In this document: one piece after another, positions 23,650 to 47,424 of the stretch | How positions within the stretch are numbered: position 1 is the first letter of the stretch | Layout of the letters: every line of letters begins with the position of its first letter | Source of the DNA: Candidatus Electrothrix aestuarii | Lineage (GTDB): Bacteria > Desulfobacterota > Desulfobulbia > Desulfobulbales > Desulfobulbaceae | Reading direction: 5' to 3' | NCBI GenBank assembly: GCA_032595685.2 | Contig: CP159373.1 | Coordinates: forward strand, 2,297,501-2,361,500 | Length of the DNA: 64,000 bases | The notes under the pieces: model-generated | Seen by the model: the letters and a program-made list of their open reading frames with translations, nothing else | The model's database searches: none | What the model was told of the DNA's origin: nothing | Program-made: the position numbers and the translations under genes

Positions 23650-25674
23650 ATGAAAAATATTTTTGCAGACATTGGTCTCCTGGCAGAGCATCTCCCCGAT
23701 TACGAATCCCGTCCTGGTCAGTTGGAGATGGCAGAAGCTGTTGCCAAGCTATTAGAGCAGGAGGGCCAACAAGTCGGCTCGGAACAGGATAGTCCTTCTT
23801 TGGCACAGTGCCTGATCGTAGAAGCGGGAACTGGGCTGGGGAAAACCTTGGCATATCTTATCCCGGCAGTGCTCAGCGGGCGCAGGGTCGTTGTTTCCAC
23901 AAATACCCGTAATCTTCAAGATCAAATCCTTAAACGGGAAATTCCCTTTATTCAGAATGCTCTTGCTCCAGGTTTACGAGCAATGACAGTGAAAGGACGC
24001 CAGAATTATCTTTGTCTTTATAGATGGCATCAGATCGCTGATCATAAGCAGCAAGTCATCTTTCAGGAGCAAGTGGGCAACAAGGGAAAGCAGGGAAAGG
24101 GGATGTACGATGTACTTGATGAGTGGTTGCAACGAACCGTTGTTGCTGATCGTGCTGAACTCTCCGGAATATCAGGTGGCTCATTGCTCTGGCAAAAGAT
24201 CTGTTGCCTGCCTCATTTTTGTCTTGGTGCAGATTGCCCTTATGCTAATGCTTGTTATTTGAATCGTCTTCGCCGCTTAGCCGCATCCTGCCAGGTCTTG
24301 GTTGTCAACCATCATCTCCTCTTTTCTGACCTGGCAGTCCGGAAAAATGGCTACGGAGAGGTGCTCCCCAGGTATCAATCTGTTATTATAGACGAAGCAC
24401 ATCACCTGGAAAATGTGGCAGGTAATTTCTTTGGCTTTTCTTTTTCTAGGTATCAGGTCGTTGATCTGATAACAGATATAGAACAGAGCGTGCTGAAAAA
24501 GGGAGGAAAGACAAGTGGTTTATATGAAAGTATGCTCTCCGCAGCCAGAGCGCTTTCCGGCCTGAACGAACAATTTGCTGCAATGTTTCCGGTCCAGAAA
24601 GGAAGATTTCCCTTAAGGGATCTTTGGGAAGAGTATCCCGAAGTGCCAAAAGCACGAGATGCTGTTATGACGGCGTTACACTCTCTGGCAGAGCAGCTCG
24701 ACAAGATCAAGGGGCAGGATGAACCTTGGGGGCATTATGGACAGCGGAGTCAGGATATTGCCCATCATCTGGAGCAGATTACCTCCCCCTTACTCCTCCC
24801 TCATGGAGAGGCCGATCTGTCCAATTATATTCAATGGGTTGAGCGAACAGAAAAGAATCTTACCCTTTCCGCCACTCCTATTGATGTTGCTGAAGAGCTG
24901 CAAAGCACACTTTTTGCTGGCGCAGAACATTGTCTCTTTACCTCTGCAACGTTGAGAACCGAGGGGGGTGATGGGGGATTTAGTTATTTTCGTCAACGTC
25001 TTGGAATTCCTGAGACCACGCAAAGTTATTCTTTTTCCTCGCCTTTTGATTATCAAAAACGAACCTTGCTTTACGTCCCTGGAGATCAATTTCCCGAACC
25101 AAATGATGCGCAGTACAGAACAGCATTGCACCAGGAACTGTTGCAACTTATTACCTGCTCTAAAGGACGTGCTCTGCTCTTGTTTACCTCGTTTCAATCG
25201 CTGGAGCTTGCATGGCATAGTTTGCAGGATCAAGTTTCGTATCCCTTGCTGCGTCAAGGTACCTGCTCACGCTCCCTGTTACTGGAACGTTTTGCGGAGC
25301 AGACAAACTCTGTCCTTTTTGCTGTTGCCAGTTTCTGGGAAGGTGTTGATGTCCCTGGAGACTCTTTGAGCTTGGTCGTTATTGATAAATTGCCGTTTGA
25401 AGTCCCCAGTGACCCTGTTATTATGGCCCGCATGGAGAGAATTAAGGCAGCCGGAGGGAATCCATTCATGGATTTTCAGATACCCAGAGCGATTCTCACC
25501 TTGAGGCAGGGCGTAGGGCGTCTCATGCGGCGTGCAAATGATCGGGGAGTTATGGCGATTCTGGATGTCCGTTTATTTAGTAAATTTTATGGTCGCCGTT
25601 TTCGGGCGAACTTACCTGCTGCTCCAATCAGTAGGGATATGCAGGATGTGGAGATTTTTTTTAATGGAGAGTAA
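23650..25674 (+). CDS. DinG/XPD-family ATP-dependent DNA helicase
   Basis: A 674-residue superfamily 2 helicase. Walker A is EAGTGLGKT near residue 60. The iron-sulfur cluster cysteines stand in CCLPHFCLGADCPYANACY near 184-203. The DEAH box is IIDEAHHLE near 245, and C-terminal motifs include LFTSATLR, LLLFTSFQSLE, SFWEGVDVPGD and the motif VI RQGVGRLMRR. Family members unwind 5'-3' at replication-blocking structures such as R-loops. No exonuclease domain is fused to it, so it is DinG/YoaA-like rather than the Gram-positive nuclease form. The start at ATG 23650 gives a normal N terminus. Confidence 0.9.
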   Translation: MKNIFADIGLLAEHLPDYESRPGQLEMAEAVAKLLEQEGQQVGSEQDSPSLAQCLIVEAGTGLGKTLAYLIPAVLSGRRVVVSTNTRNLQDQILKREIPFIQNALAPGLRAMTVKGRQNYLCLYRWHQIADHKQQVIFQEQVGNKGKQGKGMYDVLDEWLQRTVVADRAELSGISGGSLLWQKICCLPHFCLGADCPYANACYLNRLRRLAASCQVLVVNHHLLFSDLAVRKNGYGEVLPRYQSVIIDEAHHLENVAGNFFGFSFSRYQVVDLITDIEQSVLKKGGKTSGLYESMLSAARALSGLNEQFAAMFPVQKGRFPLRDLWEEYPEVPKARDAVMTALHSLAEQLDKIKGQDEPWGHYGQRSQDIAHHLEQITSPLLLPHGEADLSNYIQWVERTEKNLTLSATPIDVAEELQSTLFAGAEHCLFTSATLRTEGGDGGFSYFRQRLGIPETTQSYSFSSPFDYQKRTLLYVPGDQFPEPNDAQYRTALHQELLQLITCSKGRALLLFTSFQSLELAWHSLQDQVSYPLLRQGTCSRSLLLERFAEQTNSVLFAVASFWEGVDVPGDSLSLVVIDKLPFEVPSDPVIMARMERIKAAGGNPFMDFQIPRAILTLRQGVGRLMRRANDRGVMAILDVRLFSKFYGRRFRANLPAAPISRDMQDVEIFFNGE

Positions 25675-35471: not shown

Positions 35472-37200
35472 GTAACCGTTCAGACCCCTCTCATTTTTTA
35501 CGCAGCAAGAGGCAGAGGAGGTACATCCAGCCCCTGACGCCGAGCCGTGATAACCTCGGCGAGATATTTCCACGGACAGGCATTGCGCTTCCTACACGTA
35601 TCAATCACGCTCGCAAGTATGGCAAACACATGACTACCTTGACCATTACGGGTACCGTGGCTTAATTTGCGCGCAATAACCCAATGACGTAACGCTTGCT
35701 CCGCCTCATTATTGGTCAGGGGCCACGTCGGATTCGACAACACATGAAAAATCGTGTCCCAGTCGTTGAGAAATTCTCTGGCCAGCTCGCGTGTTTTTTT
35801 ATGATCTGAATCGCGATATTTCATGCAGCATTCTTTAAATTCGGCCAGGAATTCTCTGTATATTGGCAAAAGGTCCGTGGGTGGCCCCTCGCGAGCCTTG
35901 TAAATTACATCCATCAACTCGGTGAGTACCGCATGGGCCTCGGTGCCGAATGTGCGGGGATCATCGCTCAGGCTCTGTTTCAAACCTTTTGTCTTGCGCA
36001 GTAAATGCGCCCAGCAGCGGAGCCTGTTGAGGAACTTACGATAGGCATTGTAGCCGTCGCTCATCAGCACCCCTTAAAGGTTTGGCCGAGCACATAATCA
36101 ATTACTTTTTGGCTGCGAAGGCCAATGATGTAAAAGGTGACTTTCAGCGAGGTAAAGACCCATAACCATCGTTTTTCGGCCCACTCCTTCCAGGATGTCT
36201 CATCCACGAACAGGATCAGTGATTCACGCACCTCCTCAAGAAATTCATCGCTAAGGGGAGAAACGGCGCGGCCAGCTTCATGAATACATTGATTGATCGT
36301 GCCGATGCCCAAATCCAATCGCAGCCAATCCAGCAGAAATTCCCGGATGCGGCGGCGGGAAAGGCGCATGCGCTTGGAGAGGCACACGATCAGAGCCGTC
36401 AATTTTGGGTCGACCATGTGCCATTGACTTATTTCAACCCCCCAGTCTTCGTTTTTTCGAGACGATGGGGCATAAGCCGATTGACATGACCACAGCCGCC
36501 GCAAGTCGTGTCTCCGTAGATATGCTTGGTGTTGATCACCTCTATTCCCGGACCGGTGGCATCGCCCACCTCAATATCAATAACATAATGACCGGTGCGA
36601 GCGGTGAAGTCGCATGTTTCGTCCAGCTCAAGGTTACAAGCCGAGCAGGTGCCTGCTTTGTGAATGATGGTGTCGTGTACGGGAAGTTTTTGCGTTCGAC
36701 CATGCCCGGTGGCACCGGGTTGCTTGCCGGGTTTGTTGCCCTTGGGGCGATCATCGGTATTTTCGGGGGAATCCTGCTGGTCGGACCTGTCCGCATTCTC
36801 ATCATGCTCGGCGGACTCCTCGTTAGAATCGTCGAGTTCTATGTGCGTGGCTTCGACTTGCTCTTCATCCGGTTCCTCCTCGTCGGCTTGAGCGTCGGTA
36901 TCAAACCGGGCCCAGGGAAAGTTTGAGCTGGGAGGCATGGAGCTGTTTTCGGAATTTTGACCCAGCCGTTCGTGAAGTTCTTTGAGGTCATCAAGTGCGA
37001 GCAGGCACAGCTCCTTTGCACTCTTACCGGGCAAGGAGTCAATAAACTGCTTATCTATTTTTAGCAACTCTTCTCTGGATAGATGCATGCGAACTCAGAA
37101 CGTGGATAGATCTCGTAAAAAACGTTGTGACCGTTAAACTATCGTGATCCTCTTTTTTGTCCAGTTCTTTTTTTGTGGAATGAGGGGAGTGAACGGTTAC
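35472..37200. mobile_element. IS66-family insertion sequence, 1729 bp, with exact 8-bp target duplication
   Basis: The ends are terminal inverted repeats: GTAACCGTTCAGACCCCTC from 35472 on the left, and the complement of GTAACCGTTCACTCCCCTC ending at 37200 on the right (2 mismatches in 19). Eight-base copies of ATTTCAGG flank both ends, the duplication size known for IS66. The element carries one IS66-type transposase, on the minus strand and broken into three frames. No separate TnpA/TnpB accessory genes are visible, as in single-gene IS66 relatives. The intact target duplication implies a recent insertion. Confidence 0.92.
35498..37088 (-). pseudogene. IS66-family transposase, broken by two frame changes
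   Basis: Three overlapping frames together give one IS66 transposase. Part one (37088 to about 36440) has the acidic N-terminal region and a zinc-finger-like set (CSAC, CGGCGHVNRL). Part two (about 36440-36067) has the first catalytic aspartate in LFVDETSW. Part three (from about 36067) has the second aspartate in LMSDGYNAY and the catalytic glutamate in NNEAEQALRHWV. Each junction lies at a G run (minus strand) where one added G would restore the frame: near 36438, and near 36067 (AAGGGG before TGCTG). It is either a true pseudogene or two sequencing errors; programmed frameshifting is not known for this family. Confidence 0.88.
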
Positions 37201-37208
37201 ATTTCAGG
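37201..37208. repeat. Target-site duplication, right of IS66 element
   Basis: ATTTCAGG directly follows the right inverted repeat. It overlaps the stop codon of the Rpn gene (TGA at 37204-37206, minus strand), so the element landed exactly at that gene's end without shortening the protein. Confidence 0.85.
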
Positions 37209-38121
37209 AGGGTAACCCAAGGCAGCTTTTCGCTTCAGCTTCTGTCATCCCGGAATCGACGAGGGCCTGTATGGCCCTGGTTAAGGCTTCATCCTTTTGC
37301 GCCAATGCTTTGGCGTTTTCTTCCAGAGCTTCATCTTTCTCAGCAAGTATTTCCTTAATGACCTGATCTTTCTTAATGATAGTCCGCTCCAGAGACTCCA
37401 GTTCATCAAGGATATCGTCCTCCAGATCCATTGTGTCGCAGACATCTTCTTCCACTGCGGCCTTGAGCAGGCGGCGAATGACGATGCGGAATTCTTCGGG
37501 ATAATCCTCCTCGTTCAGATTGAGGAAATGCCGACTGTCCGACGCCTGCCGGCTCTGGTCAAAGATGCTGAGAAGGATCTCCAGATCATTCCGTCGCTTT
37601 TCTCTGAGTCGGGGGATCTGGATAATGTAGCTGTCATGGGTGAGGCTTTCGATGAACTCTTCTTTCTGGGGTAATTCCTCCTGCGTCGCTGCATCGATAT
37701 AGCTGCGCTGCACCTTGACCACCGGGCTTTCGGTATGTTCCAGAGGGTGTCCGAGGAAGTAAATGCAGATGATGGGCAAAGCCTTTTCTCCGGCACCGTC
37801 GTCTGTGGGGTAGACGTTGTTCGGATCTTGATATTGTCCGCCGAGATATTTGCGGAAGCGCATGATATCGGTGGGCAGCTTGGCCTTCTGGATTTCGATC
37901 AAAACCAGCTTGCGGCTGCCGTCCTCTTGGCGGATCACAGCGGAGAAGTCGATGCGGAAGACGGTGAGATTCAGGCCTATCTTCTTTCTGAACTCGGTGG
38001 GCTTGAACTCCAGGGTCTCGATTTCCTGATCAAGGATTTTGGAGAGGATCAGCTTGGCGATGCGCATATCGCCCAGCAGGAATTTGAAAACAACGTCGTA
38101 TATGGGGTTGGCGACTCGCAT
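37204..38121 (-). CDS. Rpn-family recombination-promoting nuclease / putative transposase
   Basis: A 305-residue PD-(D/E)XK nuclease-type protein. ATG 38121 (MRVANPIYDVVFK) is chosen because this is the invariant family N terminus; the open frame extends 51 codons upstream into repetitive sequence. Nuclease residues are visible in RIDFSAVIRQEDGSRKLVLIEIQ (D then E-x-Q near 75-95). The C-terminal third (about 225-300) is a charged coiled coil (IIKKDQVIKEILAEKDEALEENAKAL) ending in a small helical motif. Rpn proteins promote recA-independent recombination. The 5' end plus upstream DNA is duplicated at 38896-39080, and another Rpn gene starts beyond the right edge. Confidence 0.88.
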   Translation of the reverse strand: MRVANPIYDVVFKFLLGDMRIAKLILSKILDQEIETLEFKPTEFRKKIGLNLTVFRIDFSAVIRQEDGSRKLVLIEIQKAKLPTDIMRFRKYLGGQYQDPNNVYPTDDGAGEKALPIICIYFLGHPLEHTESPVVKVQRSYIDAATQEELPQKEEFIESLTHDSYIIQIPRLREKRRNDLEILLSIFDQSRQASDSRHFLNLNEEDYPEEFRIVIRRLLKAAVEEDVCDTMDLEDDILDELESLERTIIKKDQVIKEILAEKDEALEENAKALAQKDEALTRAIQALVDSGMTEAEAKSCLGLPS

Positions 38122-38226
38122 GGTTGACCGGGTTGGTTGCTGTATCTTTGGGGGATCGGGGGATGGTATGGTTGACGAGGCATCAGGTTGATGCAGTATA
38201 CTCGGGAATGAGGGAGGGGGCAATTG
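38042..38226. repeat. 185-bp direct repeat, copy A (5' end of Rpn gene and upstream)
   Basis: This segment covers the first 27 codons of the Rpn gene and about 105 bases upstream. It is repeated, with a few mismatches and small indels, at 38896-39080 in the same orientation. Between the copies lies the Phd/VapC remnant. Confidence 0.85.
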
Positions 38227-38316
38227 TTTCGGGGAAAAGAAGGGTAAGGAGATGAAAACGCCCTGAATCACCATGCGCGACTCAGGGCTTTATTTGTTCG
38301 TGGAGATGAAGAAAGA

Positions 38317-38550
38317 TTATTTCTCTGAAGGCTCCTGCTTGGAGAAGGTATCTCCATTGTCTTCCTGGTCAGACTCCGAAAAAAACCAGTTCTCAACGGT
38401 AATATCTAAGAAATGTTCAAAATCAGCTACGTTTGCTGTGGCGACTTCATGGTAATGCCGCTCAAGCTGCTTCATGACCGAAGAATCGGGCTGAGGTCTC
38501 AGCGGTTCGGAAAGAATATTCGTGTCGAGGAGGTATCTCGGCTTTACCAT
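38317..38550 (-). pseudogene. VapC-type PIN toxin with its middle deleted
   Basis: A 77-residue open frame. The first part (KPRYLLDTNILSEPLRPQ) is the N terminus of a VapC PIN ribonuclease with the first catalytic aspartate. After residue about 38 it passes without a stop into what looks like the C-terminal end of a PIN domain (VADFEHFLDITVENWF). VapC proteins are usually about 130 residues, so roughly 50-60 central residues, with the remaining acidic residues, are missing. The frame is kept. It overlaps the antitoxin gene by seven bases. It should lack nuclease activity but may still bind antitoxin. Confidence 0.75.
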
Positions 38551-38828
38551 GAGGATTCTCTTCCCGGTGAGGTTTCCCGAATTCCAGAAAATACCTCCTG
38601 GCAGTCATCAAGTTCATCTGCGTACTGATTCCGAAACTTCTTCAGTGCTTGGAAGAAATCCTGTTTCGGAGCGGAATGGAGTGATTGATATTCCGCAACG
38701 GAAACCAGTATCGCAACAGGTTCTCCATCCCGGGTCAGTCCGACTGAATGTCCCTGTTCGACAAAACTGACAATATTCTTCAGCTGCCGTGCCGCCTGTT
38801 TCATGTTGTATGATTTATCCGAGATCAT
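38544..38828 (-). CDS. Phd/YefM-family antitoxin
   Basis: A 94-residue protein starting at ATG 38828 (MISDKSYNMKQAARQ) with GGAG 7 bases upstream; an open frame reaches ten codons further. The fold is read from AARQLKNIVSFVEQGHSVGLTRDGEPVAILVSVAEYQSL, a typical Phd DNA-binding and dimerisation domain, followed by an unstructured toxin-binding tail (about 60-94). Phd proteins neutralise a toxin and repress their operon. Its partner, encoded immediately downstream and overlapping, is a truncated VapC. Confidence 0.85.
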   Translation of the reverse strand: MISDKSYNMKQAARQLKNIVSFVEQGHSVGLTRDGEPVAILVSVAEYQSLHSAPKQDFFQALKKFRNQYADELDDCQEVFSGIRETSPGRESSW

Positions 38829-38895
38829 CGTCTTGCTCCGTTTTATCTTTTTTTCCACAAAAGAATATTACCTGATGTAAACAGACACGGCAAGG

Positions 38896-39080
38896 AGAGA
38901 GGATCAGCTTGGCGATGCGCATATCGCCCAGCAGGAATTTGAAAACAACGTCGTATATGGGGTTGGCTACTCGCATGGTTGACCGGGTTGTTTGCTGTGT
39001 CTTGGGGAGTCGGGGATGGTATGGTTGACGAGGCATCAGGTAGATGCAGTATACTCGGGAATTGGGGAGGGGGCAATTGG
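38896..39080 (-). pseudogene. Truncated duplicate of Rpn gene 5' end (copy B of 185-bp repeat)
   Basis: It matches 38042-38226 over about 185 bases. It encodes only the first 27 residues of the Rpn protein, from ATG 38976 (RVANPIYDVVFKFLLGDM to KLILS), then diverges. There is no functional nuclease here. It marks the far side of the toxin-antitoxin module. Confidence 0.85.
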
Positions 39081-39327
39081 GAGTTGAGAGTTGGGAGTTG
39101 GGTGACCGGGCGGATTTTTGTTCAGAGAACAATGAGGTGTTTGGAGGTATAAAAATAGAGAGTTGAAGGCTCGCCCGCGACTTCATCGCTAAGATAGAGA
39201 AAGCGGGCGAAAATTTGGAACCTCAAACCGAATATGTAGCTGTGTGGGCGAGTAGATATCTGGTTGAGTATAGTGAGACTATCAGAGGGATATTTCTATG
39301 TTTTTAAAAGTGTAAGATTTGTTGTGA
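39081..39327. other. Intergenic region with short G-rich repeats
   Basis: It begins with about three heptamers of the GGGAGTT type near 39081-39101 and otherwise shows nothing I recognise. It ends at the 3' end of the receiver-caspase gene. Confidence 0.4.
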
Positions 39328-40497
39328 TTAATTGTTAGGCGCAAAAATAAAATCTCCTTCCTGGTATAGACAGTCAGCATCATCACTGCTATTGTAGATG
39401 TCAAAAAAATGAGGGCGTAGAGCTTCAGGCCATTTTTCATTGACGACCTTGTCGCGTAAATCATCAAATAATGATGATGTTGACAGCGGAGATACGTTTT
39501 TTTCTAGAATTTTTATAAGATGCTTTAGAAAATAGCTTTCATCCGGTGTTTTCTGATTAGCACAGGATGTCAATACTTTACGTGATGGATTTTTATGATA
39601 TTCTTTGCAGGCGATACCTTTATTACGACTATTGTCTCGACTGATTTTAAAAGACCAAGAATAACAGGCATCAATAATAAGAAGAATATGTTTTGCGGGT
39701 AACGGACGTAAATGACTTTTAATTTCAGCCGCCGAAATTTTATTGGAGTAACTGTCGTGTACGGCATCACATGGGAACCAGTACCCCTGTTTCTGCTCTT
39801 CAATCCACTCTGCATGACCAGCAAAAAAAATCATGAGGTTAGTATGAGCTGAAATTTTTCCTTTAAGATTATCTATAAAGTCGAGAATGTTTTTTCGGGT
39901 TGGATTTTCAACAACCTCACATCTGAATCTATAGCGTCTCTCCAGCAGTTCTTGAAGTTTTTTTGCGTCCTTCACCGGTTTGGTTAAATTGTCTATCATA
40001 GGATCAGTGTATTTTTCAACCGGAATAAAAATGCCAAAATATTCTCCAAAATCATATTTTGGCTGACAAAGTTCATTCAGCTTATTCTGAATGTTTTTAA
40101 AGTAATTTCCTTTTTTCTTGGATATATAATGCTCTTTTTCAAAACATTCCAGCTCATCATCACCGAGCCATAAAACCTTTTGAAAGGCTTCTCTAGCAGG
40201 ACCGGAAGGTGAATAAGCTGACAGGACAAAATAATGAATATGAGGCTTTTCTATGCGAAGAAGTTTAATAATTTTAACCAACTCAACTCCACTGAACTCT
40301 GAACGGCTATCAAGTTTTAAATCAATAAAAATACAAAAAAGATCACGATAGTTGTCACCGAAGCTCTTTCTCAATTTCTCCTCTGCTTCTATAACAGAAC
40401 AGGCAGTATAAACATTAAATTCATCAGAGAATACTTCTTGAAGTTCCTTCAAGGTTGCCTTTTCATCGTCAACAAACAATATATTCTTTTTTATCAT
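39328..40497 (-). CDS. Response regulator with caspase-like protease output domain
   Basis: A 389-residue protein combining two domains. Residues 1-130 form a receiver: LFVDDEKATL at the start, the phosphoacceptor aspartate at about residue 59 in CIFIDLKLD, and the conserved S/T in VLSAYSPSG. Residues about 165-385 form a caspase-like (clan CD) peptidase: the catalytic histidine (about 228) is in FFAGHAEW and the cysteine (about 278) in LLIIDACYSWSF, spaced 50 residues apart as in caspases. A receiver joined to a caspase-like domain is unusual. The start is ATG 40497; a TTG at 40545 is possible. It follows the GAF-GAF histidine kinase after about 63 bases on the same strand, so the kinase probably controls protease activity. 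The region is visibly AT-rich compared with mutS. Confidence 0.9.
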   Translation of the reverse strand: MIKKNILFVDDEKATLKELQEVFSDEFNVYTACSVIEAEEKLRKSFGDNYRDLFCIFIDLKLDSRSEFSGVELVKIIKLLRIEKPHIHYFVLSAYSPSGPAREAFQKVLWLGDDELECFEKEHYISKKKGNYFKNIQNKLNELCQPKYDFGEYFGIFIPVEKYTDPMIDNLTKPVKDAKKLQELLERRYRFRCEVVENPTRKNILDFIDNLKGKISAHTNLMIFFAGHAEWIEEQKQGYWFPCDAVHDSYSNKISAAEIKSHLRPLPAKHILLIIDACYSWSFKISRDNSRNKGIACKEYHKNPSRKVLTSCANQKTPDESYFLKHLIKILEKNVSPLSTSSLFDDLRDKVVNEKWPEALRPHFFDIYNSSDDADCLYQEGDFIFAPNN

Positions 40498-40560
40498 CTT
40501 TTCTATTCTGTTAAGATTGGTGTCCTTGTTAGAGGATAAGAACAATTTGAAATCAACTCG

Positions 40561-42444
40561 TTAATTGATATTGTTATATGCTGGCAATATAATTTCAAAA
40601 AGAGAGCCTTTTACCTCTCTGGTTTCATTGTAGATACTTTGGGCCTTTATTACACCGCCATGTGCCTCAACCATCTCCTTCACTGTGGGCAGTCCGAGAC
40701 CTGTACCTTGTGTGCTTAATGTAACAAACGGCTCAAAGATATTCATTCCATCTTCAAGCTGTGGCAACCCAGGACCATTATCTTGAATCTGCAAGATAAT
40801 CTTTCCTGTGTCCCTTTTTGTATGCAGCCATATTTCTGGAGTTTTCTGGTTCTCGCAACCTTCCTTAACAGCCTGTAGCGCATTTTTAATAAGCTCCTGT
40901 ATCGCCTCTGAAAAACGTATTTTATCAATTGACAATTCAGGTATATCATCAGATAAATTATAATGAATTCGAGAATCTTGTTCAGTTGATTGAGCAAATT
41001 TCGCTGCTTTACGAATCAAGTTATTGAAGTCAAGATCTGTTCTTTCCAACTCAACAGGCTTTGCAAACTGACCAAACTGTTTGACCATTTTTTTTAAATT
41101 TTCTGTTGTCGTACTGACGGTTTCGATCAGTTCAGATAGATAGTCATAGTCAGAATGTTCAAGGGTCTTTTGCTGATACATTTTATCGAATAATTTTTCC
41201 AATTTAATTTCAATATAATCGTACCGTAAAATTTGATTAATAATCCTGTGTGCCGCTTTTGCGGAAGCGAGGCGAAGTTGCCGCGTACTGTCATCCTGAA
41301 GTTTGAAATTTCTGATCGTCAAGGAAATGAGATTAGCTATAGTCTCCAGATGAAATTTATCGTCATCAGAAAAACAATCCCCAACACTAGGCTCTTTGTT
41401 TTCCAGCTTTATAAGGCCAAGACATTCATTTTTTATGACGAGAGGTACTGCAAGAAGATTTCGAAAACCATCTGTATCTCCCCATTGCTTTGTATCAATT
41501 TTCCCAAAATACATTTTTCTGTGGCGATACTCTTTCAGTTCACTCTTTGAATCAATTTTTATAGTTATTTGTTTCCTATACACGGATACAGTCAAACTTC
41601 TTGAGTCTTCTAGAGAGGTAATATCGTAATAGTTACCAATAATATGGGAGGAAAATCCTGTTCCGGCAACACATTTTAATATATTTTTATCATAAATATA
41701 TAAAGAAGCTGCTTCTGCATGAAAGTTTTTTTGTGCTGACAACAAGATAGTATTAAATAAATCTTTTTGCTTGAATGAACCGACAATATCATCGGTAACT
41801 TTTGAAAAAACATTAATTATGTTATTCTGTTGTTCCGAAGTCTGCTGATGCAGTCTGGCATTTTCCAAGGCAAGTGAAATCATGAAACCAACAGCTTTGA
41901 AAGAAGAAAATTCTTCTTCAGAAAATGATTCTGCTCCAATTTTATTTTCGATCTTTATAACGCCCGTAATTTGTTCTCCGATTTTTAGAGGTGCTGCCAT
42001 AATATTTCGCATCTCATCCATAATATTCCCTTCCTTGTCTTTTCCCCATATAGCATCATTATGTTTTTTTGCCCATGCAAGTCCTCCTTGTGCTAACTCA
42101 TTCATATGAGAACGATTTCTTATGTTGTATGATTTTCCTGTTGCAGCTATATGACCTGTGAAACTTTTCTCCTTCAACCCTTTTTCTTCTTTATCAATAT
42201 CATAGCATTTCCGTCCCTCTGCCAGTTTTTTTCCATAACCTGAGCCAGCAACGCATTCTATTACATTTGGGGAGCCTTTCTTTCGTAGAAAAATTGCGCA
42301 TACTTCGGCATGGAAAAGTTTTTGAGATAAATCAAGAGTTTTCTGTAGTAACTCATCCCTATGAAATTTTCCTGCAAAGGCCGTAGCAACTTCGTTGAGT
42401 ATTGTGTTTATGTTTAAACTCAGGTGAGTGTCTTGATCTTCCAT
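40561..42444 (-). CDS. GAF-GAF histidine kinase, partner of receiver-caspase
   Basis: A 627-residue soluble sensor kinase with no transmembrane helix. Two GAF domains come first (about 20-200, with AVCAIFLRKKG and MAAPLKIGEQITGVIKIEN; about 210-385, with AASLYIYDKN and LAVPLVIKNECLGLIKLEN). The likely phospho-acceptor histidine is in AKAAHRIINQILRYD (about 397), a variant of the usual H-box. The ATPase core is complete: IQELIKNALQAV (N box), IQDNGPGLPQ (G1), IFEPFVTLSTQGTGLGLPTV (F/G2). GAF pairs sense small molecules, cyclic nucleotides or redox state. It is transcribed with the receiver-caspase gene, its evident output. Confidence 0.9.
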   Translation of the reverse strand: MEDQDTHLSLNINTILNEVATAFAGKFHRDELLQKTLDLSQKLFHAEVCAIFLRKKGSPNVIECVAGSGYGKKLAEGRKCYDIDKEEKGLKEKSFTGHIAATGKSYNIRNRSHMNELAQGGLAWAKKHNDAIWGKDKEGNIMDEMRNIMAAPLKIGEQITGVIKIENKIGAESFSEEEFSSFKAVGFMISLALENARLHQQTSEQQNNIINVFSKVTDDIVGSFKQKDLFNTILLSAQKNFHAEAASLYIYDKNILKCVAGTGFSSHIIGNYYDITSLEDSRSLTVSVYRKQITIKIDSKSELKEYRHRKMYFGKIDTKQWGDTDGFRNLLAVPLVIKNECLGLIKLENKEPSVGDCFSDDDKFHLETIANLISLTIRNFKLQDDSTRQLRLASAKAAHRIINQILRYDYIEIKLEKLFDKMYQQKTLEHSDYDYLSELIETVSTTTENLKKMVKQFGQFAKPVELERTDLDFNNLIRKAAKFAQSTEQDSRIHYNLSDDIPELSIDKIRFSEAIQELIKNALQAVKEGCENQKTPEIWLHTKRDTGKIILQIQDNGPGLPQLEDGMNIFEPFVTLSTQGTGLGLPTVKEMVEAHGGVIKAQSIYNETREVKGSLFEIILPAYNNIN

Positions 42445-42538
42445 GACAGCTTATTCGTTATTCATGTTGTTTGTCTTTGAATTCAGTATGTTGAAAATGT
42501 AATTGGACCGTATGGGGACTAGAAGATCCATCAAAGGT

Positions 42539-42925
42539 TTACTGACTCTCTCCTTCCCCCTCATCCCCCGACTTCTTCCCACCCGCATGCGGATGCCGAT
42601 TAATATCACTCAGCCGGGTTCCTCCGGCCATCTCATACTCATTGCTATCCCTGCCGTACTTCACCTTCACCCCGGCAAGCATCTGCGAGGATAGATCACG
42701 AAGCTCTTTTTCTATTGCCTTGAAATTATTGCCCGCCGCATCGGCCTGGGCAAGTAACCCGTTGTAGGTATCCAAGGCTGTTTGCGCCTCGCTTATCTTG
42801 GCAGCATAGGCAGCAACGGTGAGATTATTGCCTAAATCGAGATTGGGATCAATTGCCCGCAGGTCATCAGTAGAGCGTTCCTGGGCATCAACGATGACTT
42901 GAGATGATTTGCGTCTGTAGGCCAT
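42539..42925 (-). CDS. Conserved 128-aa protein, paralogue of the 10.1-kb gene
   Basis: It belongs to the same family as the protein at 10118-10474, with shared SQVIVDA, IDPNLDLG, LTVAAYA and the C-terminal LAGVKVKYGRDSNEYEMAGGTR. The helical middle fits a coiled coil, and the tail is charged (HAGGKKSGDEGEGES). It lies 94 bases upstream of the GAF-GAF kinase on the same strand and might be co-transcribed with it. On its upstream side the broken IS4-type element begins close to its start, so its native promoter may have been displaced. Function is unknown. Confidence 0.75.
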   Translation of the reverse strand: MAYRRKSSQVIVDAQERSTDDLRAIDPNLDLGNNLTVAAYAAKISEAQTALDTYNGLLAQADAAGNNFKAIEKELRDLSSQMLAGVKVKYGRDSNEYEMAGGTRLSDINRHPHAGGKKSGDEGEGESQ

Positions 42926-42949
42926 CAGTAATTTTAAATTTTATTATTA

Positions 42950-44276
42950 TCAAGTCGATAGCCTTTTAATCTCAAGCTGTTCAAACATAAAATTTATCAG
43001 CTGAGACCAATTACTGAAAAATAAATATTTGGTTAATGCTTTCAGGTCATTAAAAAATGTTTTCCGGACAGACAAGACCGATCTGACGGCTTTGTATTTT
43101 TTATCAACAAATTCCAGGAAAGTATGGGCCAGAAATGCGACCAAGTTGAGAGTGAGCAAGGTGTTCGAGAGAAATTTATCACCATGTCTGAAATTGTGAT
43201 CTAAATGATAGCCTTTTGTTTTGAGGACATTATTGTTTTCATTTTCCACTTTCCATCGAGTTCTTCCGGCTTGTACTGTAGATTGAACATTGGTTCTGTC
43301 TATTTTAAAATCAGTGATAAAAGAATTCTTGTACAGAACCTCTTGTGTTTTGGTGTTGATGACGGTCAACTCAACCCAATTGACAAAAGGAGCGTCATCC
43401 CCCCCGCTTGAGGGGTAAGTTATTAGCATAACGATAAGTATGAAGCTCGTGAAATTTTCCGTTCCATTTTCTTTGAGAAGTTACTGTAATACCATCTTTC
43501 TTTTCAAGTTCGGCAACATACTGATAAAGGGTCGTATGTGAGGAGGGTTTGCAAATCAGGATAAAGCGAAAACTATGTGCCGATAATAAGTTGCAAAACG
43601 GCCCTCTGGAAAACAAGTCGTCTCCCAGGATGATAACTTTTCGATCCGATAAAGAGGAATTCCGTTCAATCCAGCGCTTAGCAGCATTCAACTCGCAATC
43701 CTGTTTTGCAGAACCATCCTGAGGGGTGACGAATTCCGGTTCCAGAGCGATGACCTTGTTGTTGTCCGGTGCAGCTACCACCGGAGTAAGAACCTTATGG
43801 GAATAACTCACCGTTCCATTGGAGTTACGAGTAACGGAACAGTTTTCACAATGTATTTTGGAGGAACGAAAAAATTCTGTACCATCTATCGGAACCAACA
43901 AATAATCATCCAGCACTCTATAACGATCCAAGTATCCAGCACTTTCAAGCCGATCAAAAGTTTCTGAAAAAATTGGATAAAAATTATCAGAAGTAAGGGT
44001 GTCAAGAAGATTACGGGTCTGATTGTCCGACATGATTTGTGTTATTCCGAACAAACTTTGAGCATTATTATGCCCGTGAGCCTGCCGCATTGCCCGCTGA
44101 TGAGATAAGAATGACGGGGATTGATTGAAAAACATGGAAAACGCACCTAACGCCGCATCCTTCATTGAATATGTGAGGTTTGGGCTGAATTTCCGGTAAT
44201 CCGGGAGTTCATCAAATATGCTATGGATCTGATTGACAAACGTATCGAATGTTAATTCGTTGGTATTTGAAGGCAT
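42950..44276 (-). pseudogene. IS4-family transposase, frame broken in a G run
   Basis: Two frames join into one IS4-type transposase of about 450 residues. The N-terminal frame (44276-43395) carries catalytic aspartates in LVPIDGTEFF and VIILGDDLFSR. The C-terminal frame (43429-42950) carries the Y-R-E-K-type motif of the IS4 family in RTRWKVENENNNVLKTKGYHL. The break falls in a run of seven G (minus strand, near 43400); six G would keep the frame. Either a slippage mutation, programmed slippage or a sequencing error is possible. I could not fix the element's terminal repeats. Confidence 0.85.
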
Positions 44277-44411
44277 AAGCAGAGGACTCGTGTGATATTG
44301 ATCATGCCTTTCAATAACACATATTCGTTAAATAAAATAGTATGTTGTCAAATTTATAATTGCTGTTCCGAGCCGGAAATATACAAAACGATACGGATTA
44401 AAGGGGGAATA

Positions 44412-44705
44412 ATGAAAAAGAACAAAAAGGCGTTTGCGCCCATCGATCAGGAAGAAGAAGAGCTGATGGCATCAATCGAGCATGACGATTGGCAGCCTGT
44501 CGATGACCTTGAACAGGAGAAGACAAAAGCTGTTGCCGCCGCACGAAACACCCTGAAAAAAGACAGGAGAATCAATCTCCGGCTCACTGAACAGGACTAT
44601 TACCGGATACAGATAAAGGCTGCCGAGGAAGGTATACCCTATCAGACCCTTATCTCCAGCATCGTCCACAAATACCTTAACGGCACTCTGAGAGCAAAGG
44701 CGTAG
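44412..44705 (+). CDS. Orphan CopG-type antitoxin
   Basis: A 97-residue protein from ATG 44412, with AAGGGGG just upstream; the open frame starts further back, at 44292. The C-terminal half (RRINLRLTEQDYYRIQIKAAEEGIPYQTLISSIVHKYLNG) is the CopG-antitoxin form of the ribbon-helix-helix fold. The N terminus is an acidic linker. The usual partner toxin gene immediately upstream is absent; the IS4-type element ends there instead. It may be the surviving half of a module. Confidence 0.8.
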   Translation: MKKNKKAFAPIDQEEEELMASIEHDDWQPVDDLEQEKTKAVAAARNTLKKDRRINLRLTEQDYYRIQIKAAEEGIPYQTLISSIVHKYLNGTLRAKA

Positions 44706-44742
44706 TGCAACCTCTTCTTTCACAGTCCCATAAATTGACCTC

Positions 44743-47424
44743 TCACTCCTCCCGCATCACCTCCACCAACTCATACAACAGATCATGGGCCTGCCTCGGC
44801 GTCAGTTCATTAGGGTCAATCTCCTTCATGCGGGTACGCAGGGGATCTTCCTTAGGCGGGAAGAGGGTTAACTGGCAGGGATGGGGCTTTCTCTTCACGG
44901 ACACCGCAATAGTCGGTTCCCCGGTGGCGGTGAATTCACCTTTCTCGATATTGGTGAGGATCTCCTGGGCCCGGTCAACCACATGGTCCGGGACCCCGGC
45001 CAGGGCCGCGACCTGGATACCATAGCTGCGGCTGGCAGCACCCTGGACCAGTTTATGGAGGAAATGGACCCGATTATCCCGTTCCCGTACCGCAATGGAA
45101 TAGTTCTGAATCCGTTCGTGGGTGGTGGCCAGGTCGGTGAGCTCATGGTAATGGGTGGCGAACATGGTCTTGACCCCGCGCCCGTTTTTGTCCGCCAGTT
45201 CCTCGGCCACGGCCCAGGCAATAGCCAGGCCGTCGTATGTTGAGGTTCCGCGTCCGATCTCATCCAGGATCACCAGGCTGTGCTCCGTGGCATTATTAAG
45301 GATATTGGCGGTCTCATTCATCTCCACCATAAAGGTGGACTGGCCCCGGCGCAGGTCATCCATTGCCCCGACCCTGGTGAAGATGCGGTCCACAATGCCG
45401 ATCTCGGCCCAGTCCGCCGGGACAAAGCTGCCGATATGGGCCATGAGGACAATCAGGGCGGTCTGGCGCAGCACTGTGGACTTACCCGCCATATTGGGAC
45501 CGGTGATGATGAGGAGCTCGTTTGCCTCCTGATCCAGTGAGACATCATTGGGCACAAAGCTGCCCGGATCCAGGGAGCGTTCGATCACCGGGTGACGGCC
45601 CTCCACAATGGAGACAGTGCGTTTATCAGTGATAGTCGGGCGGATGTACTGATAATGGTCCGCAGCGCGGGCCAGGCTGACGAGAAAGTCGGTGCGGGCG
45701 ATAGAGAGGGCCGCAGCCAGCAGGCGTTCGCTCTGGGCTGCAATCTTTTCCCGGATATCGAGGAAGAGGCTGTATTCCAGGGTGAGTCGCTTTTCCTGGG
45801 CCGTGGAGATCTTGTTCTCCAGCTCCTTGAGCTCCGGGGTGATAAAGCGCTCTGCATTGACCAGGGTCTGCTTGCGGATGAAGTCCTCGGGCAGCTCCCC
45901 TTTATGGGCCCGGCTGACCTCGAAATAATAGCCGAACACCCTGTTGAAGCCCACCTTAAGCTTGGCAATGCCAGTGCGCTCCCGCTCCTTGGCCTCCAGG
46001 TTGAGGATGAGCTGCTTGCCATCCCTGAGCAGATAGATCAGCTCGTCCAGTTCCCCATGAAAGCCCTCCCGGATTAAGCGTCCTTCGCGCAGGGTTATCG
46101 GTGCATCATCGCGGATGGCCTTGTCGATCAGCTCGTGGAGATCAAAGAGCGGGTCCAGCTCCATGCCGATCTCCTGCAAGAGGCCTCCGGGGGTATTCAT
46201 AAGGAGCTTTTTCAGGTCCGGCAACTGGCCCAGAGAGACTTTCAGGGCGGCCATGTCCCGGGCATTGCCCTGTCCCAGCACCAGCCGACTACAGAGGCGC
46301 TCAATATCATAGATACCAGCCAACAGCTCCTGAAGCTCCCGGCGCAGGGTATACTCATTGAGCAGGATCTCCACTGCTGTGAGGCGCTGTTCGATCTTAT
46401 CCGCATCCTGGAGGGGAAAGAGCAGGCGCTGCCGGAGCAGGCGGGCCCCCATCGGGGTGGAGGTCAGGTCCAGCACTGAGAGGAGGGAGCCCTTGCGCTT
46501 GCCACCGATAATGGTCTCGGTCAGCTCCAGGTTACGGCGGGAGGATTCATCGATAATCAGGAAACCTGAGCGGGTGAGCAGGCTGAGCTGGCGGATAAAG
46601 GAGAGATCGGTCTTTTGGGTCTCCTGGATATAGGTGAGCAGGGCCCCGGCAGCGCAGATCCCGGTCTCCATATCCTGACAACCGAATCCTGCCAGCGAGC
46701 TGGTCTTGAAATGCTCGTTCAGGGTGGTCAGGGCGGTGTCATAGGTGAATGACCAGGCCTGCCGCTCCGTGAGGCAGAGGCCTGGAATCAGGGTACACAG
46801 CATGTCGCTGAGCACGGCAAGGGATTCCGTCTCCTCGTCGGCAAGGAGCAACTCTGCCGGTTGCATCCGGGTGATCTCGTCGATGACCGGATCAAGGTTT
46901 GCATCCTGGAGCGGGATCTCACTGATCAGGAAGTTGCCGGTGGAGACATCGAGAAAGCTCAGGCCGATCGTGAGCAGCTTCTGTCCCTTGCGGGCCGCCG
47001 TCAGGGCGCAGACAAAGGTGTTGGCCTTCTCATCCAGGAGCTGATCGTCCGTGGTCACCCCTGGACTGACCACCCGCACCACCTCCCGCTTCACGATGCC
47101 CTTGGCTTCTTTGGGATCTTCGGCCTGCTCGCAGATCGCCACCCGGTACCCTGCCTTGACCATCTTGCTCAGATAGCCGGAAACCGCATGATAGGGCACC
47201 CCGCACATGGGCACCTGGTTCTCGTCGCCCTTATTGCGCGAGGTCAGGGTGATGCCCAGCACCCGCGAGGCGGTCTCGGCATCCTCAAAGAACATCTCGT
47301 AGAAGTCGCCCATGCGGTAAAAGAGGATCGTGCCCGGATGCTGCTCCTTGATTTCCAGGTACTGGCGGAGCATGGGGGTGATTTTAGGGGCGGCGGGTTG
47401 TTTCCGGGTGGTTTTGGTGGTCAT
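44743..47424 (-). CDS. mutS: DNA mismatch repair protein MutS
   Basis: An 893-residue MutS. The mismatch-binding Phe-x-Glu is in MGDFYEMF near residue 40. The connector, lever and clamp regions follow, and the ATPase has Walker A in GPNMAGKST near 643 and Walker B in LVILDEIGRGTSTYDG near 718. The C-terminal tail ends with the LTPRQAHDLLYELVEVM dimer/tetramer helix. The gene is complete and visibly GC-richer than the island upstream, which is why long false frames appear on the opposite strand. It marks the return to core chromosome after the accessory island. Confidence 0.95.
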   Translation of the reverse strand: MTTKTTRKQPAAPKITPMLRQYLEIKEQHPGTILFYRMGDFYEMFFEDAETASRVLGITLTSRNKGDENQVPMCGVPYHAVSGYLSKMVKAGYRVAICEQAEDPKEAKGIVKREVVRVVSPGVTTDDQLLDEKANTFVCALTAARKGQKLLTIGLSFLDVSTGNFLISEIPLQDANLDPVIDEITRMQPAELLLADEETESLAVLSDMLCTLIPGLCLTERQAWSFTYDTALTTLNEHFKTSSLAGFGCQDMETGICAAGALLTYIQETQKTDLSFIRQLSLLTRSGFLIIDESSRRNLELTETIIGGKRKGSLLSVLDLTSTPMGARLLRQRLLFPLQDADKIEQRLTAVEILLNEYTLRRELQELLAGIYDIERLCSRLVLGQGNARDMAALKVSLGQLPDLKKLLMNTPGGLLQEIGMELDPLFDLHELIDKAIRDDAPITLREGRLIREGFHGELDELIYLLRDGKQLILNLEAKERERTGIAKLKVGFNRVFGYYFEVSRAHKGELPEDFIRKQTLVNAERFITPELKELENKISTAQEKRLTLEYSLFLDIREKIAAQSERLLAAALSIARTDFLVSLARAADHYQYIRPTITDKRTVSIVEGRHPVIERSLDPGSFVPNDVSLDQEANELLIITGPNMAGKSTVLRQTALIVLMAHIGSFVPADWAEIGIVDRIFTRVGAMDDLRRGQSTFMVEMNETANILNNATEHSLVILDEIGRGTSTYDGLAIAWAVAEELADKNGRGVKTMFATHYHELTDLATTHERIQNYSIAVRERDNRVHFLHKLVQGAASRSYGIQVAALAGVPDHVVDRAQEILTNIEKGEFTATGEPTIAVSVKRKPHPCQLTLFPPKEDPLRTRMKEIDPNELTPRQAHDLLYELVEVMREE

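What the first reader, a model, noticed from the sequence alone, without database searches (positions are those of the whole stretch)
39328..42444. Two-component system with a caspase-like protease as output
The sequence shows a GAF-GAF histidine kinase followed on the same strand by a protein in which a complete receiver domain (D59) is fused to a caspase-like domain with its His228/Cys278 pair intact. Caspase-like proteases in bacteria are linked to self-killing and defence, and receivers usually drive DNA binding or enzymes such as cyclases; direct phosphorelay control of a caspase-like protease is rarely described. The block is AT-rich and sits inside a mobile-element island, so it may be a horizontally acquired stress or abortive-infection module. 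A small conserved protein (42539) lies just upstream.
Basis: partly seen in the sequence, partly recalled or inferred. Interest (0 to 1): 0.85.

Follow-up and report, generated by a model that had tools for sequence, protein, structure and literature searches.

The report
Receiver-caspase fusion beside its kinase
A bacterium, probably a cable bacterium, carries a two-gene unit in which a sensor kinase sits next to a phosphorylation-switch domain fused to a caspase-type protease, in a kind of genomic slot that in its relatives often holds antiviral defence genes, so it may be a self-killing or defence circuit run by a classic bacterial signalling relay.

Summary
Minus-strand gene 40561-42444 encodes a GAF-GAF histidine kinase; 15 bases on, 39328-40545 encodes a receiver fused to a caspase. 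Both folds were modelled: the caspase half matches metacaspase 4 and MALT1 (Z about 21), the receiver half matches receiver domains. The receiver is divergent (below Pfam's cut-off) but keeps its switch residues; the caspase dyad H228/C278 is intact. The kinase's H-box (HRIIN) is atypical, so phosphotransfer is unproven. None of 174 other caspase ORFs fetched carries a detectable receiver. The caspase groups with mostly exported Bacteroidota/Syntrophaceae caspases, and the pair is markedly AT-rich: probably horizontal gain. The small upstream gene is informative: it is multicopy, and its downstream slot holds an AT-rich gene in 12 of 27 copies examined. Of 10 such cargo genes tested, 5 match defence models (restriction-type methyltransferase, Hachiman HamA, Uzume UzuA, two candidates), against 1 of 10 flanking controls (p 0.07). 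This favours, but does not prove, a defence role. The closest known logic is Detocs, but no buffer receiver lies within 16 kb and the effector is a caspase. I rate it a new variant of a known kind; biochemistry and phage assays are needed.

The parts
39328..40545 (-). receiver-caspase fusion gene, 405 aa from TTG (389 aa from ATG 40497)
40051..40497 (-). receiver domain, residues 1-149 (ATG numbering)
   Evidence: Pfam E 9.3e-4; model pLDDT 86.6 and receiver hits in PDB
40321..40323 (-). codon of Asp59, predicted phosphorylation site
   Evidence: invariant among 28 receivers
39331..40050 (-). caspase (Peptidase C14) part, residues 150-389
39814..39816 (-). codon of catalytic His228
   Evidence: invariant among 22 caspases
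39664..39672 (-). codons of Asp276-Ala277-Cys278: catalytic Cys and the Asp expected to favour a basic P1 residue
   Evidence: D276 invariant, C278 at least 90% among 22 caspases; meaning of the Asp is recalled
40561..42444 (-). histidine kinase gene, 627 aa: GAF, GAF, H-box region, HATPase_c
41248..41250 (-). codon of His399, candidate phospho-acceptor in AAHRIINQ
   Evidence: read from sequence; no Pfam HisKA match
42539..42925 (-). small multicopy protein gene (128 aa), proposed anchor of the cargo slot

Best explanation
A two-gene signalling unit. The soluble GAF-GAF kinase senses an internal cue (unknown) and autophosphorylates. The phosphoryl group passes to D59 of the receiver, which frees or dimerises the attached caspase. 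The caspase then cleaves host or phage proteins, probably after Arg or Lys, and arrests or kills an infected or stressed cell; defence is the likelier use. Shown here: both folds, intact catalytic and switch residues, gene order, AT-rich make-up, position in a slot whose other occupants are often defence genes. Inferred: autophosphorylation, transfer to D59, activation, protease activity, substrates, defence.
For: Folds; conserved residues; kinase ATP-binding boxes N, G1, F, G2; genes 15 bases apart on one strand with matching GC3; caspase grouping with Bacteroidota/Syntrophaceae sequences; AT-rich cargo after 12 of 27 anchor-gene copies against 1 of 27 upstream neighbours; 5 of 10 cargo genes match defence models at E under 1e-20 against 1 of 10 controls.
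Against: Single locus with no orthologue found. Receiver under Pfam's cut-off. H-box has Arg where HisKA kinases have an acidic residue, and no HisKA match. The cargo contrast is weak in numbers (p 0.07) and its sites are not all independent. The PADLOC copy gives the kinase no match at E 1 and the fusion only a 32-bit match to its caspase model. Some cargo genes have no defence match.
Confidence: 0.55

Rival explanations
1. A kinase-controlled caspase for ordinary regulated proteolysis or filament development rather than defence: the kinase reads a metabolic or redox cue and the caspase trims chosen host proteins.
For: GAF domains are general sensors (established knowledge). The genome has 10 C14 domains, and another anchor copy is followed by an exported-looking caspase with TPR and CsgG-like genes, not a known defence system. 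Several cargo genes have no defence match.
Against: Foreign base make-up, absence from the relatives sampled and a slot shared with restriction, Hachiman and Uzume genes.
Confidence: 0.22
2. The receiver works without the kinase, as a ligand- or nucleotide-responsive or oligomerising switch, as proposed for receivers in conflict systems.
For: Divergent receiver; the idea of histidine-kinase-independent receivers in conflict systems (PMC8195603, passage); atypical H-box of the kinase.
Against: Phosphorylation residues are all kept and a kinase gene lies 15 bases upstream.
Confidence: 0.1
3. A chance fusion or decaying cargo without a present function.
For: No orthologue found; long branch in the tree; mobile-element remains nearby.
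Against: Both reading frames are full length with the key residues and boxes intact.
Confidence: 0.08

Closest known systems
Detocs (defensive two-component system, DtcA-DtcB-DtcC)
   Same: A histidine kinase gene next to a response regulator that carries an effector, used in phage defence (PMC11249213 and PMC11728103, passages).
   Different: Two genes, not three: no separate buffer receiver within about 16 kb. Caspase effector instead of the ATP-cleaving PNP. Sequence kinship to DtcA/DtcC not tested; the primary paper was not held.
Bacterial caspase homologues (orthocaspases/metacaspases, Peptidase C14)
   Same: Caspase fold and His-Cys dyad.
   Different: Receiver at the N-terminus. Table 1 of PMC8283722 lists 35 accessory domains in 473 cyanobacterial orthocaspases, including HisKA and HATPase_c (4 each), but no Response_reg. 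Of 114 N-terminal parts scanned here (query included) the commonest companion is Glucodextran_B, 39.
VMAP/iSTAND/TERNS conflict systems
   Same: Caspases and receivers both occur among their parts (PMC7159879, PMC8195603; passages).
   Different: In those passages receivers occur apart from histidine kinases, and no receiver-caspase fusion is mentioned; I did not read the papers whole.
Response regulators with enzymatic output (for example CheB, cyclases; recalled)
   Same: Receiver controlling an enzyme in the same chain.
   Different: The enzyme is a caspase-type protease.

Membership tests
Peptidase C14 / caspase fold | caspase fold | tested here: met
   Foldseek E 5.5e-10 to MALT1; VIA Z 21.4 to metacaspase 4, 205 residues aligned, rmsd 2.5
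Peptidase C14 / caspase fold | catalytic His-Cys dyad | tested here: met
   H228 invariant, C278 at least 90% among 22 sequences
Peptidase C14 / caspase fold | proteolytic activity | not testable with these tools
   needs an assay
Response regulator | receiver fold with Asp-Asp, phospho-Asp and Lys | tested here: met
Response regulator | Pfam Response_reg gathering score | tested here: not met
   19.8 bits against 30.2; 21.9 bits for the N-terminal part alone
Histidine kinase | HATPase_c domain with N, G1, F, G2 boxes | tested here: met
   E 1e-18; boxes at 517, 555, 570, 580
Histidine kinase, HisKA type | HisKA dimerisation and phospho-acceptor domain by Pfam | tested here: not met
   no HisKA match up to E 0.1; H399 sits in HRIIN instead of H-[DE]-x-x-[NT]
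Detocs | kinase gene beside a response regulator with an effector domain | tested here: met
Detocs | separate buffer receiver (DtcB) in the operon | tested here: not met
   the nearest other of 98 receiver matches in the genome lies about 16 kb away; the small upstream protein has no Pfam match
Detocs | PNP effector of the best-described system | tested here: not met
   the effector is a caspase
Detocs | sequence kinship to DtcA/DtcC | not tested
   I had no reference sequences; the PADLOC copy gave the kinase no match at E 1
Detocs | protection from phage | not testable with these tools
   needs phage assays

The most novel reading that the evidence does not exclude
A new immune circuit in a multicellular (probably cable) bacterium: a soluble phosphorelay directly switches a cytosolic caspase, made by replacing the export and N-terminal part of a Bacteroidota-type caspase with a receiver, and delivered as interchangeable cargo into a multicopy defence slot anchored by a small protein gene and, at some copies, marked by a 68-base hairpin-forming element.
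Probability: 0.3. Interest if true: 0.86.

Novelty: new variant of a known kind. Interest (0 to 1): 0.68.

Why it matters
If true, apoptosis-type protease control would be wired straight into the commonest bacterial signalling relay, giving a phospho-switchable caspase that can be tested in vitro. The anchor gene also gives a handle for finding more defence cargo in this genus; two cable-bacteria genome papers that I text-searched contain neither 'phage', 'defense' nor 'caspase' (PMC10580974, PMC12093952).

Tried and rejected
Orthologue hunts that found none. Receiver alone against plasmids: only weak general response regulators. Kinase: 57 relatives at E 1e-20, 6 with a match (own genome included), others kinase core only; 73 family genomes, 2 with a match; 32 genomes, 0; 296 Bacteroidota, 0; plasmids, 1116 records, best ones core only and at most 5 covering 80% at about 22% identity; its GAF-GAF part, none; viral contigs, none. 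These are samples; the first look scored only a few candidates per genome in large groups, and the tool warns that an empty answer without a positive control shows little.

Receiver check on caspases. An early filtered receiver HMM missed the query's own receiver, so I repeated it with filters off: it ranks the query first (E 0.0092, the model not containing it), next row 0.25, over 178 caspase ORF rows of which 4 are the query, so 0 of 174 others. At least five genes are in those rows twice, and some ORFs are cut by locus ends. Pfam on 113 N-terminal parts plus the query did not show Response_reg among the 25 commonest families; up to three other members could still match. Left out there: 52 ORFs with under 100 aa before the domain, plasmid loci and identical parts.

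Alignments A1 and A2 mixed receivers and caspases, misplaced the receivers and were dropped. A first tree of 161 rows flagged the query as a long branch; for the 150-row tree 11 other long rows were removed, among them one own-genome paralogue (L004). The tree is the quick kind (LG+G4, midpoint root).

Cargo. 28 stretches plus the window gave 27 anchor ORFs; three stretches (L220, L240, L241) gave none. The GC3 threshold 0.38 was chosen, so 12 of 27 is exploratory, and several sites are orthologous pairs (L214/L219, L215/L221, L216/L224), so the p values (0.0004 and 0.0055) are nominal. The 10 cargo genes given to PADLOC are first downstream genes of 10 sites, chosen by me; the window site, L224 (same cargo as L216), L225, L220 and sites without AT-rich cargo were not given. 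More distant copies (for example in G016) have ordinary downstream genes. HamA in L221 is a partial match (185 of 314 positions). The second slot comparison (L215 against L221) shares the upstream flank only.

The idea that the 68-base element is an integron attC site was not upheld by its ends (my reading); it folds as a hairpin (z -4.4 and -2.9). No Rfam family in 36000-46000. Promoter-like consensus matches are 22 against 12.5 +/- 3.8 expected and terminator-like 6 against 3.4 +/- 2.1; I built nothing on them. No PDB relative by sequence at E 0.01. NCBIfam's caspase model matches at 47.5 bits, below its cut-off of 140.

Papers: searches (open-licence library only) showed no receiver-caspase protein in their listings. 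I saw passages of PMC8195603, PMC7159879, PMC3501461, PMC11249213, PMC11728103, PMC10952713, PMC7517822, PMC10926707 and PMC12093952; section 15 whole and passages of PMC8283722; zero hits for my terms in PMC7475262 and PMC10580974. Figures, including Fig. 2 of PMC3501461, were not seen. The Detocs primary paper was not held and is cited from other papers' words.

Full report
What is there. On the minus strand the order is small gene 42539-42925, kinase gene 40561-42444, fusion gene 39328-40545. The kinase has two GAF stretches and a HATPase_c domain; I see no export or membrane part in it (my reading). The fusion has an N-terminal receiver and a C-terminal caspase. Kinase stop and fusion TTG start are 15 bases apart (63 if the ATG at 40497 is used). 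Third-position GC is 0.30 and 0.31; the small gene has 0.55, the gene 44743-47424 (mutS by my reading) 0.77.

Is the caspase real? Pfam C14 scores 60.5 bits against a cut-off of 21.4. The AlphaFold2 model has block pLDDT 87-97 over residues 151-280. Foldseek finds MALT1 and caspase-3; VIA-align gives Z 21.4 to Arabidopsis metacaspase 4 and 21.3 to MALT1. His228 and Asp276 are invariant and Cys278 at least 90% conserved in 22 aligned caspases. Asp two residues before Cys fits a basic P1 preference (recalled for metacaspases and paracaspases; [quoted passage not shown]

Is the receiver real? It scores below Pfam's cut-off and is the weakest of 98 receiver matches in its genome, yet D11, D59, G70, G112 and K127 are invariant over 28 receivers. 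Modelled with 25 other receivers it reaches pLDDT 86.6 and pTM 0.84, and its best PDB matches are receiver domains. So it is a divergent receiver with an intact switch site.

Is the kinase a kinase? N, G1, F and G2 boxes are present. The candidate phospho-acceptor H399 lies in AAHRIINQ, with Arg where HisKA kinases have Asp or Glu, and Pfam HisKA gives no match. An HRxxN box recalls HisKA_2/HWE kinases (from memory). Activity must be measured.

How unusual is the fusion? With filters off, a receiver model that does not contain the query finds the query at E 0.0092 and none of the 174 other caspase ORF rows better than 0.25. Usual N-terminal companions, of 114 parts scanned (query included), are Ig-like Glucodextran_B (39) and Sel1 (16). 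In print, Table 1 of PMC8283722 lists 35 accessory domains in 473 cyanobacterial orthocaspases, with HisKA and HATPase_c in 4 each, but no Response_reg. Papers on conflict systems mention receivers and caspases as separate parts. No search listing showed a receiver-caspase protein; the library is partial.

Where does it come from? In a quick tree of 150 caspase domains the query groups with 24 Bacteroidota and deltaproteobacterial (mostly Syntrophaceae) sequences (SH-aLRT 97), not with the own-genome paralogues kept in the tree. Its branch is long (1.13), its join to its nearest row is weak (77), and one own paralogue had been dropped as a long row, so its exact place is unsure. By score too, its best matches outside are Bacteroidota (147 bits) against 70 bits for the best own paralogue. 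By a crude hydrophobicity measure 19 of the 24 relatives have an export-like N-terminus; the fusion does not. This suggests that a receiver replaced the export part of such a caspase. No orthologue of kinase or fusion was found in the genomes sampled.

The neighbour that matters. The small upstream protein has 7 matches in its genome and matches in 8 of 27 genomes searched (own included), up to 13 in one. I fetched 28 stretches around copies in this and six related genomes. Over 27 anchor ORFs (window included), the first gene downstream has GC3 under 0.38 in 12, the first gene upstream in 1, and all other genes in the stretches in 37 of 251. At one conserved position (same 485-aa gene upstream, same 715-aa gene downstream) this genome has an 898-aa AT-rich gene and G007 a 213-aa AT-rich gene: the slot exchanges cargo. 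Of 10 cargo genes scanned, 5 match PADLOC models at E under 1e-20: a restriction-type methyltransferase (L214), PDC-S31 (L218), HamA of Hachiman (L221, partial, with a DEAD-box gene further on), UzuA (L223) and PDC-S06 (L229). Of 10 flanking control genes 1 does, a generic TPR model. The contrast is suggestive, not decisive (p 0.07). A 68-base hairpin-forming element follows the small gene at 8 sites and recurs further downstream in L221; L215 has only a distal copy; the window site lacks it.

Mechanism. I take the pair as a phosphorelay that switches a caspase, most likely for defence (confidence 0.55 for the whole chain). It works like Detocs, a kinase plus a response regulator carrying an effector. 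Membership is not shown: the nearest other receiver is about 16 kb away, the effector differs, and sequence kinship was not tested.

Host. A genome of the same genus, G007, is one contig of 5,089,909 bases, matching the 5.09 Mbp circular genome of Candidatus Electrothrix scaldis (abstract of PMC10926707). So the host is probably a cable bacterium, a multicellular filament; this rests on size alone.

Limits. One locus, no biochemistry, sampled genomes, a partial literature library, an exploratory cargo threshold, and related sites counted together.

Noticed in passing
window 42539-42925 and anchor copies in L214-L241: Small multicopy gene whose downstream slot holds AT-rich, exchangeable cargo in 12 of 27 copies; 5 of 10 cargo genes tested match defence models. 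It looks like a genus-wide defence slot.
   Followed up: partly
L214:7908-7975, L218:2148-2215, L219:7892-7959, L221:7995-8062 and 2884-2951, L222:7913-7980, L223:8057-8124, L225:2027-2094, L228:7087-7153, L215:4853-4915: 68-base imperfect palindrome after the anchor gene (8 sites) or further downstream (2 places); folds as a hairpin as single-stranded DNA (z -4.4 and -2.9 for two copies). Sequences diverge right after it. Possible recombination site.
   Followed up: partly
L215:4963-8336 (-), own genome: A second anchor copy is followed by an AT-rich four-gene block with a TPR protein, an export-like caspase and a CsgG-like protein.
   Followed up: no
own genome G000: 10 Peptidase C14 domains and 98 receiver matches in one 5.1 Mb genome; only 1 of 14 control genomes has any C14 match.
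   Followed up: no
window 23650-25674 (+): DinG-like helicase with a strong match to a PADLOC typeIV_DinG model (E 7.5e-133); no CRISPR search was made.
   Followed up: no
window 38042-38226 and 38897-39079: Duplicated stretch (111 and 76 bases, 96% and 92% identical) just downstream of the fusion gene; a Phd/YefM-type antitoxin gene (38544-38858) lies between the copies.
   Followed up: no
window 42950-44276 (-) and 35498-37088 (-): Upstream, two overlapping ORFs in different frames that look like one broken transposase (my reading; no Pfam or NCBIfam match). Downstream, IS66 transposase split over several ORFs.
   Followed up: no
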